Position numbers and translations under genes: made by a program. The notes beneath the pieces were generated by a model, which had not been told where the DNA came from, searched no databases, and worked only from the letters and a program-made list of their open reading frames with translations. Below are positions 1,939-6,168 of a stretch of DNA of 6,250 nucleotides, piece after piece (positions within the stretch are counted from its first letter, which is position 1; every line of letters starts with the position of its first letter). This stretch comes from B21-G16 sp003644825 [NCBI: Candidatus Zhuqueibacterota bacterium] (lineage in GTDB: Bacteria > SM23-31 > B21-G16): the NCBI GenBank assembly GCA_003644825.1, contig QNDJ01000114.1, forward strand, positions 1 to 6,250. Direction: 5' to 3'.

Positions 1939-2967
1939 TTAAGAAAACTGTTTTATAAATCTTAAGTCATTTTCATAAAATAGTCTTATATCGTCAATTT
2001 CGAATTTCACCATTGCAATTCTTTCAACCCCCATACCAAAGGCAAAACCTGTAAAAACTTCCGGGTCATATCCAACAAATTTAAAAACCTCCGGGTCAAC
2101 CATACCTGCTCCGGAAATTTCTATCCATCCTGTATTTTTACATACACTACATCCTTTTCCTCTGCATAGAATGCAGGAAAAATCATATTCTGCACTGGGC
2201 TCCGTAAAAGGAAAAAAACTGGGCCGAAAACGAACCTTTGCTGACCTGCCAAATAAATGTCGGGCAAAAGATAATATTACACCTTTCAGGTCAGCCATTG
2301 AAACATCCCTGTCAACACAGAGCCCTTCTACCTGGTAAAAAACCGGTGAATGTGTAGCATCAGGCGTGTCTTTTCTGAAAACCCGCCCCGGAGCAATTAT
2401 TCTCACCGGTGGTTTCATTTTTTCCATAACACGAATCTGAACCGGAGAAGTGTGAGTTCTTAACAAACCACCAGAATCAAGATATAATGTATCCTGTAAA
2501 TCCCTGGATGGATGATTTTCAGGCATATTTAATGCTTCAAAATTATAGTAGTCAGTTTCAATCTCAGGACCCGTTGCAACCTCAAAACCCATCGAATAAA
2601 ATGCGTCTTTTATTTCTTCAAGTATAATATTTATCGGATGTTTTGAACCCAGGAAAAATTTTCTTCCTGGTAATGTGATATCTATTTTTTCCTCTTTTTC
2701 AGAAATTTTCTCAAATTCAACTAATTTTTCTTCTATTTCCTGTTTGATAAGGCTTTTAATAAAGTTTAGCTCTTTTCCGAATAAAGCTCTCTCTGAAGGA
2801 GATTTTTCTTTTATCTTTTTAAACAAACTGGAAATTAACCCTTTCCTTCCGAGGTATTTAAACCTTACTTTTTCGGCTTCGTTAAAATTAGTTATACCAC
2901 TTTTATCCTGGAAGAAATTATTAACTAATTCTTTTAATTCAACAAAAGTTATAGAAATTTTTTCCAT
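1939..2967 (-). CDS. pheS: Phenylalanine--tRNA ligase alpha subunit
   Basis: This is the catalytic alpha subunit of cytoplasmic PheRS, which activates phenylalanine with ATP and charges tRNA-Phe; it works with PheT encoded immediately downstream. The product is 342 residues, slightly longer than the 327 of E. coli. The N-terminal 1-90 is the helical, probably coiled-coil tRNA-binding arm. Class II motif 1 lies around H110-P111, motif 2 at about 194-215 (GRVFRKDTPDATHSPVFYQ), and motif 3 at about 307-319 (GFAFGMGVERIAM). A309 corresponds to the E. coli specificity residue A294 by my alignment. Residues 265-276 hold four cysteines (C265, C268, C273, C276), a probable zinc knob known in many bacterial PheS proteins. 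The ATG at 2967 gives the expected N-terminus, but no clear Shine-Dalgarno precedes it. The 44-base gap from rplT shows no strong terminator. The TAA stop is one base from the pheT start. Confidence 0.98.
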   Translation of the reverse strand: MEKISITFVELKELVNNFFQDKSGITNFNEAEKVRFKYLGRKGLISSLFKKIKEKSPSERALFGKELNFIKSLIKQEIEEKLVEFEKISEKEEKIDITLPGRKFFLGSKHPINIILEEIKDAFYSMGFEVATGPEIETDYYNFEALNMPENHPSRDLQDTLYLDSGGLLRTHTSPVQIRVMEKMKPPVRIIAPGRVFRKDTPDATHSPVFYQVEGLCVDRDVSMADLKGVILSFARHLFGRSAKVRFRPSFFPFTEPSAEYDFSCILCRGKGCSVCKNTGWIEISGAGMVDPEVFKFVGYDPEVFTGFAFGMGVERIAMVKFEIDDIRLFYENDLRFIKQFS

Positions 2968-3011: not shown

Positions 3012-3362
3012 TTAATTTGCACTTACAGTATTAACAATTTCTTTAAAAATGTCCGGCTCGTTAACAGCTAAATCAGCAAGTATTTTCCTTGAAATTTTTA
3101 TGTTAGCTTTATTAATAGCATCCATAAACTTTGAGTAAGAAAAGCCATACTGTCTTACGGCTGCATTAATTCGCACTATCCACAATCTCCTGAAATCCCT
3201 TTTTCTTACTTTTCTGTCTCTGTATGAATAAAGTAAAGCTTTACTTACACTATCCTTTGCTGTTTTATACAATTTGCTTCTTCCACCTCTGTATCCTTTA
3301 GCCATTTTTAAAATCTTTTTATGTTTTTTTCTTGCTGCAACAACATTTTTAGCTCTTGGCAT
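3012..3362 (-). CDS. rplT: 50S ribosomal protein L20
   Basis: L20 binds 23S rRNA early in large-subunit assembly, and in E. coli and Firmicutes it also represses its own operon by binding mRNA. The 116-residue product has the family length. It starts with the typical MPRAKNVVAARKKHKKILKMAKGYRGGRSKLY basic extension and continues with RDRKVRKRDFRRLWIVRINAA and a globular C-terminal domain. The start is fixed by the conserved MPR N-terminus and by a perfect AGGAGG six bases upstream. It follows rpmI after a 77-base spacer with a strong hairpin, the longest spacer between protein genes here. The gene ends in TAA. Confidence 0.98.
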   Translation of the reverse strand: MPRAKNVVAARKKHKKILKMAKGYRGGRSKLYKTAKDSVSKALLYSYRDRKVRKRDFRRLWIVRINAAVRQYGFSYSKFMDAINKANIKISRKILADLAVNEPDIFKEIVNTVSAN

Positions 3363-3387: not shown

Positions 3388-3420
3388 AAAAATAACCCTA
3401 TGTTTATACACAGGGTTATT
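3388..3420 (-). terminator. Terminator-like hairpin between rpmI and rplT (possible attenuator or L20-responsive leader)
   Basis: On the minus strand AATAACCCTGTGT (3420-3408) and ACATAGGGTTATT (3403-3391) form a 13-bp stem with one G-U pair and an ATAA tetraloop. The 3' arm runs into a stretch of five T residues (3392-3388), two of which belong to the stem, so the U tract is short. As rplT, pheS and pheT lie downstream in the same orientation, full termination here is unlikely. Partial attenuation, RNA processing or protein binding are alternatives. The structure is directly visible; the role is inference. Confidence 0.55.
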
Positions 3421-3440: not shown

Positions 3441-3629
3441 TTATATCATTTGAATAACCCTTTTCCTGTCAACTGGAGAAATTAAAGAAGGTTTTCTTAA
3501 GTTCCTTTTTCTTTTTCTTGTTTTTTTAGTAAGTATATGACTTCCGTAGGATTTTCTTCTTTTAATTTTTCCTGAAGCAGTAAATTTAAACCTTTTAGCA
3601 GCACCTCTATTTGTTTTGATTTTAGGCAT
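3441..3629 (-). CDS. rpmI: 50S ribosomal protein L35
   Basis: L35 is a small, very basic protein of the large ribosomal subunit. The product is 62 residues, close to the usual 64-66, with the signature N-terminus [21 protein letters not shown] and a Lys/Arg-rich centre ([12 protein letters not shown]), ending in [13 protein letters not shown] chose the ATG at 3629 rather than the in-frame ATG at 3656. MPKIKT is the family N-terminus, AAAGGA sits nine bases before it, and the longer form would overlap the end of infC. The gap from the infC stop is 13 bases. The stop is TAA. Confidence 0.97.
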
Positions 3630-3638
3630 TTTTAACAG

Positions 3639-3644
3639 TCCTTT
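3639..3644 (-). promoter_or_regulatory. Shine-Dalgarno of rpmI (AAAGGA)
   Basis: AAAGGA at 3644-3639 lies nine bases upstream of the ATG at 3629 and overlaps the infC stop codon (3645-3643). It decides the start of rpmI in favour of the conserved MPKIKT N-terminus over the upstream in-frame ATG at 3656. Confidence 0.75.
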
Positions 3645-4152
3645 ACTTTTTAACAAACATTCCTATAAGATTTCTTCCTTCTTTTTTAACGGGGGCTTCC
3701 AGTTTAGCAATATCTGACAAATTTTCTTTTATTTTATCAAAAATTTCATATCCAAACTTGATATAGGCAAGTTCCCTACCCTTGAAAAAAACAGAAACTT
3801 TAACTTTATTGCCCTGTTCAATAAAATTTCTTATATGTTTTATTTTAAATTCAAGGTCATGTTTTTCAATTTTTGGTCTGAACCTGACCTCTTTAATGTG
3901 AATTATATGTTGTTTCTTTTTACTTTCTCTTTCTTTTTTTGTTAACTCATATTTATATTTTCCATAATTCATTATTTTACATACCGGTGGTCGTGAATTT
4001 GGTGCAACTTCTACCAGGTCAAGTCCTTCTGATTCTGCTATTTCCAGAGCTTTATCTGTATTAAGGATTCCAATCTGTTTTCCATCAGGTGCTATTACAC
4101 GAACCTTCGGTACTTTAATCTGCTTATTTACTCTAATATTATTTTTCTTAAT
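3643..4152 (-). CDS. infC: Translation initiation factor IF-3, probable AUU start
   Basis: IF3 binds the 30S subunit, prevents premature joining of the 50S, and checks the start codon and initiator tRNA. Reading upstream from the ATG at 3972 the frame stays open and encodes the missing half of the IF3 N-domain, including [45 protein letters not shown]. The next upstream stop is the thrS TAG at 4158-4156. Between that stop and Met61 there is no ATG, GTG or TTG; the best start is ATT at 4152-4150, eight bases after AAAGGAG. This gives 169 residues, near the family's 170-180: N-domain about 4-73, Lys/Glu-rich linker, C-domain about 80-167 ([38 protein letters not shown] is its start). E. coli infC also starts with AUU and is autoregulated through it. 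Starting at 3972 would delete most of the N-domain, so I reject that. Confidence 0.93.
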
Positions 4153-4170
4153 AGGCTATTCTCCTTTTTT
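4153..4170 (-). promoter_or_regulatory. Shine-Dalgarno of infC inside the thrS 3' end
   Basis: The minus strand reads AAAAAAGGAG (4170-4161) then AATAGCCT (4160-4153) before ATT. The GGAG core is eight bases from the ATT, an ideal distance. It overlaps the last Lys, Gly and Glu codons of thrS and precedes its TAG stop. No ATG, GTG or TTG lies at a usable distance, so this site is the main evidence for the AUU start. Confidence 0.8.
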
Positions 4171-6096
4171 AATCAATGAAAAAACATCTCCCTTCTCCTG
4201 CTCAAAAAACTGAATTAGTTCGTTCAAAGATTTTTTACCGATATCACCTGATTTTCTTTTTCTAAGGGAAACAGTATTAGTTGTAATTTCCTTTTCTCCT
4301 ACAATACACATAAAAGGAACTTTTTGCATCTCACTTTCTCTAATTTTATATCCAACCTTTTCATTTCTTAAATCAATTTCGGTTCTGAAATTGTTATTGA
4401 TTAACAATTTATATACTTTAAGGGCATAATTATGATATTTCTCGCTAACTGGAATTATCATTACCTGAACAGGGGTAAGCCAGAAAGGTATATCACCGGC
4501 ATAATGTTCAATGAGAATACCAATGAATCTCTCAATTGAGCCAAGAAATGTTCTATGAATCATTACAGGCTTTTTCTTTGCCCCATCTTTATCTGTATAT
4601 TCCAGATTAAATCTTTCGGGCATAGCAAAATCAAGTTGAATTGTACCGCATTGCCACCCTCTCATTAAACAATCAAAAATATGAAAGTCGATTTTGGGCC
4701 CATAAAATGCGCCATCACCCGGGTTAATTTTATGTGGAATCCCCTGTTCCTCCAGTACTTCTGAAAGTATTTTTTCTGCAAAATTCCACATATCTATCGA
4801 ACCAATGTATTTTTCCGGCCTTGTTGATAATTCTACCTTGTAGTTATCAAAACCAAAAATTTTGTATATCTTTGTAGTTAAGTCTATCAGTGTAAAAATT
4901 TCCTCTTTTATTTGGGCAGGTGTACAATATATGTGAGCGTCATCCTGAATAAAAGCCCTTACCCTGAATAATCCATGTAAAACCCCTGACTTTTCATTCC
5001 TGTGGTCATGGCCGAACTCCGGATATCTTATGGGAAGATCTCTATAGCTTCTTAAACGATTTTTATATATTAAAATACTCCCCGGGCAGTTCATCGGTTT
5101 TAAAGCATAGTTTATATTTTCAATCTTTGTAAAATACATTTCCTCTTTGAATTTGTCCCAGTGACCACTCTGACGCCATAGTTGCTCATTCATTAAAACA
5201 GGGGTTAAAATCTCTTTATATCCCCATTCTCTATACACTTTTCTCAGGAAATTATAAATTTCATTAACAATTATCATTCCTTTTGGATGCCAGAAAACAA
5301 AACCCGGTGCTTCATTATGGAAGCTGAATAAATCAAGTTCTTTTCCTAACTTTCTGTGGTCTCTTTTTTTTGCTTCTTTAAGAAAATTTAAATAGTTTTC
5401 AAGTTTTTCTTTTTCAGGAAATGAAATACCATATATTCGTTGCAGCATCTTATTTTTTTCATCACCTTTCCAGTATGCACCGGCCAGGCTTATGAGCTTA
5501 AAATTTTTAATATACCCTGTTGAAGGAAGATGAGGACCCCTGCACAGGTCGGAAAAATTCCCCTGAAAATACAATGAAACCTCATTATCTTCTATTTCAC
5601 CAAGCAATTCAACTTTGTAATCTTCATTTAATTTCCGAAAATGTTTTATTGCTTCCTCTTTATTTAGAATTTTTCTTTCTATTTTAATATCCTGCTTTGC
5701 TATTTTATCCATTTCTTCTTCAATTTTCTTAAGGTCTTCAGGAGTAAAAGAATCTTTATAATCTATATCGTAATAAAAACCTTTTTCAATCGGTGGGCCA
5801 ATAGCAATTTTAGCTTCAGGAAACAGGTTTTTTATAGCATTTGCCATAAGATGAGATGTGCTATGCCAGTATACCTCCATTCCCTCAGGAGTATCATAGG
5901 TTACTAACTCCAGTTTACCATCTTCATACAGTGGTTCGGTTAGGTCTATCATTTTATCATTGAATTTTGCAGCAACTGATTTTTTAACCGCTGACTTTTC
6001 TACTGAATTTGCCACATCAAGAGGTGAAACTCCGGCTTTAAACTTCTTACCTTCAAAATTATTAAATTCTATAATTATCTCTTTTTTATTTTCCAT
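4156..6096 (-). CDS. thrS: Threonine--tRNA ligase
   Basis: This class II synthetase charges tRNA-Thr and hydrolyses mischarged Ser-tRNA-Thr. The 646-residue product is full length and colinear with the E. coli enzyme (key residues offset by about +3 to +5). Residues 1-65 are a TGS domain and about 70-225 the editing domain, with H78, H82, C185 and H189 (HSTSH and CRGPH motifs). About 250-540 is the catalytic core, with zinc ligands C337 (MNCPG), H388 (QDDAHIY) and H514 (IHRTFLGS), motif 2 arginine R366 and motif 3 arginine R523. About 545-640 is the anticodon-binding domain. The ATG at 6096 is the only sensible start, yet only a weak AAAG-type sequence precedes it. The gene lies about 25 bases after a terminator-like U tract that follows tRNA-Val. 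It ends in TAG, and infC begins three bases later in the same frame. Confidence 0.98.
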   Translation of the reverse strand: MENKKEIIIEFNNFEGKKFKAGVSPLDVANSVEKSAVKKSVAAKFNDKMIDLTEPLYEDGKLELVTYDTPEGMEVYWHSTSHLMANAIKNLFPEAKIAIGPPIEKGFYYDIDYKDSFTPEDLKKIEEEMDKIAKQDIKIERKILNKEEAIKHFRKLNEDYKVELLGEIEDNEVSLYFQGNFSDLCRGPHLPSTGYIKNFKLISLAGAYWKGDEKNKMLQRIYGISFPEKEKLENYLNFLKEAKKRDHRKLGKELDLFSFHNEAPGFVFWHPKGMIIVNEIYNFLRKVYREWGYKEILTPVLMNEQLWRQSGHWDKFKEEMYFTKIENINYALKPMNCPGSILIYKNRLRSYRDLPIRYPEFGHDHRNEKSGVLHGLFRVRAFIQDDAHIYCTPAQIKEEIFTLIDLTTKIYKIFGFDNYKVELSTRPEKYIGSIDMWNFAEKILSEVLEEQGIPHKINPGDGAFYGPKIDFHIFDCLMRGWQCGTIQLDFAMPERFNLEYTDKDGAKKKPVMIHRTFLGSIERFIGILIEHYAGDIPFWLTPVQVMIIPVSEKYHNYALKVYKLLINNNFRTEIDLRNEKVGYKIRESEMQKVPFMCIVGEKEITTNTVSLRKRKSGDIGKKSLNELIQFFEQEKGDVFSLIKKGE

Positions 6097-6102
6097 AAAA
6101 AT

Positions 6103-6131
6103 ATCTTTTTTTAAGTTCTTAAAAAAAAGAT
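6103..6131 (-). promoter_or_regulatory. Alternative hairpin overlapping terminator U tract and thrS leader
   Basis: On the minus strand ATC, eight T and AAG (6131-6118) are followed by AA and then CTT, seven A and GAT (6115-6103). These arms pair over 13 bp with one bulged U. The 5' arm reuses the terminator's last stem bases and U tract, so the two structures exclude each other for those bases. The 3' arm covers the A-rich sequence just before the thrS ATG where a ribosome would land. The pairing is visible; its use in the cell is inference, and A/T-only pairing is weak. Confidence 0.3.
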
Positions 6132-6168
6132 TTTAGATAATATATAAGTTCATATTATCTAAAATCTT
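6121..6168 (-). terminator. Rho-independent terminator after tRNA-Val, upstream of thrS
   Basis: A perfect 17-bp inverted repeat, AAGATTTTAGATAATAT (6168-6152) and ATATTATCTAAAATCTT (6143-6127), encloses an 8-base loop. On the minus strand the 3' arm runs into eight consecutive T residues (6128-6121). On the plus strand no T run follows, so the signal is oriented with the tRNA gene. The stem is mostly A/T, so efficiency may be modest. It either ends the tRNA transcript or attenuates read-through into thrS. Confidence 0.75.

What the first reader, a model, noticed from the sequence alone, without database searches (positions are those of the whole stretch)
3972..4170. infC starts with AUU and loses 60 residues if only ATG, GTG or TTG starts are allowed
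The open frame upstream of the ATG at 3972 encodes the conserved IF3 N-domain, and no ATG, GTG or TTG exists between the upstream in-frame stop and Met61. An ATT at 4152-4150 sits eight bases after AAAGGAG. AUU starts on infC are known from E. coli, where IF3 rejects non-standard starts and so represses itself; seeing it here suggests the same feedback loop. It also makes this gene easy to mis-annotate.
Basis: partly seen in the sequence, partly recalled or inferred. Interest (0 to 1): 0.6.

Follow-up and report, generated by a model that had tools for sequence, protein, structure and literature searches.

The report
Initiation factor gene with AUU start
[quoted passage not shown] coli and several other bacteria; it is an ordinary case of a known, probably self-limiting gene, useful mainly as a reminder that gene finders misplace its start.

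Summary
On the minus strand the IF3 frame runs from ATT 4152-4150 to its stop at 3643, with AAAGGAG exactly 8 bases upstream. No ATG, GTG or TTG occurs in frame between the thrS stop (TAG, 4158-4156) and Met61 at 3972. Pfam finds the IF3 N-domain only in the extended product.

It is also ordinary. In 82 of 110 infC loci the best ribosome-binding site sits at ATT, ATA or ATC; the same rule gives ATG in 97 of 102 rplT and 85 of 102 rpmI loci. Six genomes of the window's phylum are held; the four with an infC match use ATT or ATA. E. coli K-12 has the same layout: stop codon, three bases, ATT. Papers report AUU in E. coli and B. subtilis, AUC in Streptomyces and AUA in S. aureus, with autoregulation known from E. 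coli.

The feedback loop is therefore the best explanation here, but for this organism it is inferred; nothing was measured. Of 15 recalled E. coli IF3 positions, 7 are identical, 4 conservative and 4 changed, so functional equivalence is not shown. Category: new member of a known kind, low interest.

The parts
3643..4152 (-). infC, translation initiation factor IF3, 169 aa, AUU start
   Evidence: IF3_N plus IF3_C; NCBIfam infC positions 2-166 of 170
4150..4152 (-). AUU start codon of infC
   Evidence: 6-base Shine-Dalgarno match; corresponds to ATT/ATA starts of phylum relatives and ATT of E. coli
4161..4167 (-). Shine-Dalgarno AAAGGAG, lying inside the 3' end of thrS
   Evidence: 8 bases before ATT
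4156..6096 (-). thrS, threonyl-tRNA synthetase; its TAG (4158-4156) is 3 bases before the infC start
3970..3972 (-). ATG (Met61), first standard start codon, the one the mechanical ORF list picks; no Shine-Dalgarno match
3441..3629 (-). rpmI (L35), likely ATG start
   Evidence: Shine-Dalgarno match (5 bases) at ATG 3629, none at the TTG 3656 chosen by the ORF listing; Pfam L35 match starts at residue 11 of the longer form
3012..3362 (-). rplT (L20), ATG start
1939..2967 (-). pheS

Best explanation
This is the infC gene of a thrS-infC-rpmI-rplT-pheS cluster. Ribosomes start at AUU 4152-4150, guided by AAAGGAG in the last codons of thrS, and make a complete two-domain IF3. The initiator tRNA pairs poorly with the third base of AUU. 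When IF3 is plentiful it destabilises such 30S complexes and lowers its own synthesis; when IF3 is scarce the AUU is used more. Because the thrS stop is 3 bases before the start, ribosomes finishing thrS probably also feed infC. Shown here: reading frame, codon, Shine-Dalgarno site, gene order, and recurrence of AUU/AUA/AUC across relatives. Inferred: actual initiation at AUU, feedback by IF3, coupling to thrS.
For: IF3_N only in the extended form. Shine-Dalgarno at the right distance, uncommon in random codon draws. Best-site start codons in 110 infC loci (window and E. coli K-12 included): ATC 28, ATT 27, ATA 27, TTG 19, ATG 4, CTG 2, none 3; 42 of 110 have no ATG/GTG/TTG before the conserved motif. 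Same rule on neighbours: rplT ATG 97 of 102 (ATA or CTG 3), rpmI ATG 85 of 102 (ATT, ATA or CTG 6); 0 of 102 lack a standard start in either. Own phylum: 4 of the 4 genomes with a match, of 6 held. E. coli K-12 reads TAA-GGT-ATT against TAG-CCT-ATT here. Passages read: E. coli and B. subtilis AUU (PMC1805508; B. subtilis also PMC6097659), Streptomyces AUC and the E. coli loop described (PMC5472188), S. aureus AUA with ribosome density at that codon (PMC13009471), IF3 lowering the full-length share from AUU read by a CAU anticodon in vitro (PMC10158994).
Against: No proteomics, profiling or reporter data for this organism. The genome is an incomplete assembly (83.63% complete, 493 contigs) in which no 16S rRNA was found, so the anti-Shine-Dalgarno could not be read. 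Of 15 E. coli IF3 positions that I recalled as possible contact or fidelity sites, 7 are identical, 4 are conservative (E30D, R112K, R131K, R147K) and 4 differ (E32K, Y107L, R116N, R129F), so equal discrimination is not assured. In 20 of 20 spirochaete-titled loci the best site is not at AUH, and a wider spirochaete sample has it in 35 of 76, so the feature is not universal.
Confidence: 0.86

Rival explanations
1. Translation starts at Met61 (3972) and the cell makes a short IF3 consisting of the C-domain only.
For: It is the first standard start codon; the short form still matches IF3_C fully.
Against: No Shine-Dalgarno match before 3972. The upstream frame encodes a conserved IF3_N domain; L002 is 64% identical over residues 1-169.
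Confidence: 0.02
2. The AUU is real but is only a weak-start device that keeps IF3 low; there is no IF3-dependent feedback in this lineage.
For: Four of 15 recalled positions differ from E. coli. No regulation data exist. Some spirochaete loci use UUG, CUG or AUG, so the feature can be lost.
Against: In most loci of the sample the third base is T, A or C and not G, as expected if a third-base mismatch is what is kept.
Confidence: 0.12
3. An ATG at this place was misread or mis-assembled as ATT.
For: Single contig of a draft assembly.
Against: Three other genomes of the phylum have their best site at ATT or ATA, and non-ATG is the commoner state of the gene in the sample.
Confidence: 0.01
4. 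UAG readthrough makes a ThrRS-IF3 fusion, since thrS and infC share a frame here.
For: thrS stop and infC start are in the same frame with one codon between.
Against: The layout is not kept in the phylum: in L003 and L008 infC overlaps thrS by 4 bases in another frame, and in L002 it is 114 bases away with a further in-frame stop between. A Shine-Dalgarno site at the start is not needed for readthrough. A suppressor tRNA was not searched for.
Confidence: 0.01

Closest known systems
Escherichia coli K-12 infC (b1718), AUU start with IF3 feedback
   Same: Gene order thrS-infC-rpmI-rplT-pheS, AUU start, Shine-Dalgarno inside the thrS end, three bases between thrS stop and start; 42% protein identity.
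   Different: N-terminal tail 7 residues shorter; E. coli R116 and R129 are N and F here; rplT to pheS is 44 bases here and about 450 in E. coli, where pheM lies between.
Bacillus subtilis infC (AUU)
   Same: AUU start (PMC1805508 and PMC6097659, passages).
   Different: There an L20-interacting RNA leader precedes infC (PMC6097659, title and passages); here Rfam reports no L20 leader at gathering threshold and thrS abuts infC.
Staphylococcus aureus infC (AUA) and Streptomyces infC (AUC)
   Same: AUH start, autoregulation proposed (PMC13009471 and PMC5472188, passages).
   Different: Third base of the start codon differs.

Membership tests
bacterial IF3 (infC) | IF3_N and IF3_C domains in one chain | tested here: met
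   NCBIfam equivalog TIGR00168 at 214.3 bits against a cut-off of 60
infC genes with an AUH start | AUU, AUA or AUC at the conserved N-terminus with a Shine-Dalgarno site and no standard start usable | tested here: met
   (sequence evidence only)
E. coli-type IF3 translational feedback | Expression from the AUU start falls when IF3 rises, and AUG abolishes this | not testable with these tools
   needs an experiment
E. coli-type IF3 translational feedback | C-domain basic residues (E. coli numbering, recalled) R99, R112, R116, R129, R131, R133, R147, R168 kept | tested here: inconclusive
   3 identical, 3 Lys, 2 not basic; K110 is identical and Y107 is Leu
L20-leader controlled infC operons (Firmicutes type) | L20 leader RNA upstream of infC | tested here: not met
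   only a tRNA reaches the gathering score; thrS ends 3 bases upstream

The most novel reading that the evidence does not exclude
The start codon and the thrS stop work as one unit: ribosomes ending thrS re-initiate at a poor codon a few bases away (TAG-CCT-ATT here, ATAA or ATAG overlaps in L003, L008, L023 and L065), so IF3 would control its own level mainly by gating re-initiation after thrS, tying IF3 supply to threonyl-tRNA synthetase translation.
Probability: 0.15. Interest if true: 0.4.

Novelty: new member of a known kind. Interest (0 to 1): 0.15.

Why it matters
It adds a little-sampled phylum (six genomes held) to the known pattern that infC tends to avoid a G in the third start-codon position, and it shows again that callers limited to ATG, GTG and TTG delete the whole N-domain of IF3. 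Beyond that it changes little; papers on the E. coli loop date from 1986-1987 (reference entries).

Tried and rejected
Met61 start, sequencing error and UAG readthrough were considered and set aside for the reasons under the rivals. L20-leader control was checked with Rfam and not found. The anti-Shine-Dalgarno was sought by pattern and by the 16S family; neither was found in this incomplete genome, so Shine-Dalgarno scoring uses the common bacterial consensus. Whether spirochaetes had simply lost the AUH start was followed with the 76 matches from 80 genomes drawn from the phylum of L057's genome: ATA 19, ATG 16, TTG 13, ATT 11, CTG 7, ATC 5, none 5. So that phylum is mixed, and several single picks are ambiguous (for example ATA directly followed by ATG in L146). 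The first impression of a clean loss (20 of 20) holds only for the loci.

Limits of the survey: the 80 named loci are the best 80 of 156 confirmed and lean to the window protein's nearest relatives; near-identical loci (such as L031/L032/L035/L036) were not thinned; there is no weighting by phylogeny. All 110 loci entered the infC count. For rplT and rpmI 102 of 110 did; 8 fell to the script's filters (no match, match starting after residue 15, or no upstream stop in the locus), not itemised. The rule takes the longest Shine-Dalgarno match and can err in single cases (L011, L022, L002). The three 'none' loci (L004, L073, L075) have GTG, ATG and ATG with a site just outside the allowed spacing or just upstream.

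Papers: I saw listings and passages only, no whole text. None of the titles listed is a cross-bacterial survey of infC starts; several listings were capped (25 of 144, 10 of 1,420, 15 of 23, 15 of 87). An arXiv paper on genes preferring non-AUG starts (Gvozdjak and Samanta 2020) is cited in PMC9845219 (reference entry only) and was not read. PMC2268962 on re-initiation gave only a reference entry for my terms.

Full report
What is there. The window's minus strand carries thrS (6096-4156), infC (4152-3643), rpmI (likely 3629-3441), rplT (3362-3012) and pheS (2967-1939). A further frame (1937 onward, open at the window end) is pheT by position and recalled resemblance; it was not searched. A tRNA-Val lies upstream of thrS (6249-6175). 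The infC frame has no ATG, GTG or TTG between the thrS stop and codon 61. ATT at 4152-4150 stands 8 bases after AAAGGAG.

Which start is used. The protein read from ATT is a complete IF3: IF3_N at residues 8-76 and IF3_C at 84-167, and NCBIfam infC from model position 2. Read from Met61 the N-domain is gone. A 6-base Shine-Dalgarno match precedes ATT 4152; Met61 has none and the second ATT (4137) a 4-base match. A match that long arose in 1.2% of 20,000 random draws of thrS codons.

Relatives. I scored 110 infC loci by the best Shine-Dalgarno site: ATC 28, ATT 27, ATA 27, TTG 19, ATG 4, CTG 2, none 3. In 42 of 110 there is no ATG, GTG or TTG before the conserved motif. As a control the same rule gave, for rplT, ATG 97, ATA 2, CTG 1, TTG 1, none 1 (of 102), and for rpmI, ATG 85, ATT 3, GTG 3, CTG 2, ATA 1, TTG 1, none 7 (of 102). 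No control locus lacked a standard start. So the rule makes a few odd picks, far fewer than in infC. In the window's phylum six genomes are held and four have an infC match, with ATT, ATT, ATA and ATA. The 25 genomes outside the phylum, each from a different family and all with a match, gave ATA 8, ATC 6, ATT 6, ATG 2, TTG 2, none 1.

E. coli. In K-12, thrS ends TAA, then GGT, then ATT; here it is TAG, CCT, ATT. The 3-base gap is found in 3 of the 46 loci with thrS adjacent (the window, E. coli, and L009, whose pick is ATG), so it may be coincidence. In four loci (L003, L008, L023, L065) the start overlaps the thrS stop as ATAA or ATAG, which fits coupling between the two genes; in many others the gap is 89 bases or more.

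Mechanism. In the known E. [quoted passage not shown] the original papers by Butler, Sacerdot and colleagues were seen only as reference entries). In an in vitro system, raising IF3 to 1.5 uM cut the full-length share for AUU read by a CAU anticodon to 31.1%; for standard starts the passage gives AUG 90.4%, GUG 73.8% and UUG 55.8% (PMC10158994, passages). The same loop is the best explanation here, but it is inferred. One caution: of 15 recalled E. coli positions, 7 are identical here, 4 conservative and 4 changed, R116 to N and R129 to F among them.

Known status. AUU starts on infC are in print for E. coli and B. subtilis (PMC1805508; PMC6097659), AUC for Streptomyces (PMC5472188), and AUA for S. 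aureus with ribosome density at the codon (PMC13009471), all read as passages. PMC5472188 also states that infC starts are misannotated in most Streptomyces species. The finding is therefore a new instance of a known kind.

Side line. In all 20 spirochaete-titled loci the best site is not at AUH (17 TTG, 2 ATG, 1 without a pick but with ATG close after a GGAGG), against 82 AUH of the other 90 loci. A wider look at 76 infC matches from 80 genomes of one such phylum was mixed: ATA 19, ATG 16, TTG 13, ATT 11, CTG 7, ATC 5, none 5. Start-codon choice in infC seems labile there. None of the ten papers listed (of 45) in my one search on it is, by title, about this.

Noticed in passing
6121-6167, minus strand: 17-pair (one G-T) A+T-rich hairpin followed by a run of T between tRNA-Val and thrS: terminator- or attenuator-like, yet the thrS ATG is only 24 bases further on and has no Shine-Dalgarno match. 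The terminator scan does not list it; it asks for at least 3 G-C pairs and a loop of 3-8.
   Followed up: partly
3391-3420, minus strand: Strong hairpin (AATAACCCT...AGGGTTATT) between rpmI and rplT; possible site of L20 control or RNA processing. No Rfam family matches at gathering threshold. Relatives were not compared.
   Followed up: partly
3656-3630: The mechanical ORF list extends rpmI to a TTG inside the infC end; the ATG at 3629 with a Shine-Dalgarno match is the likelier start.
   Followed up: yes
L047-L100 (20 spirochaete-titled loci), L111-L186: infC start codon looks labile in spirochaetes: UUG, CUG and AUG as well as AUH. AUG, and perhaps UUG, should be less exposed to IF3 discrimination than AUH, a natural contrast for testing the loop; in vitro UUG is itself partly disfavoured (PMC10158994, passages).
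   Followed up: partly
L003, L008, L023, L065: infC start ATA overlaps the thrS stop as ATAA or ATAG, a non-AUG form of the common ATGA stop-start overlap.
   Followed up: partly
L069, L070: Two near-identical uncultured actinobacterial infC loci have no ATG, GTG or TTG before the conserved motif and CTG as best start.
   Followed up: no
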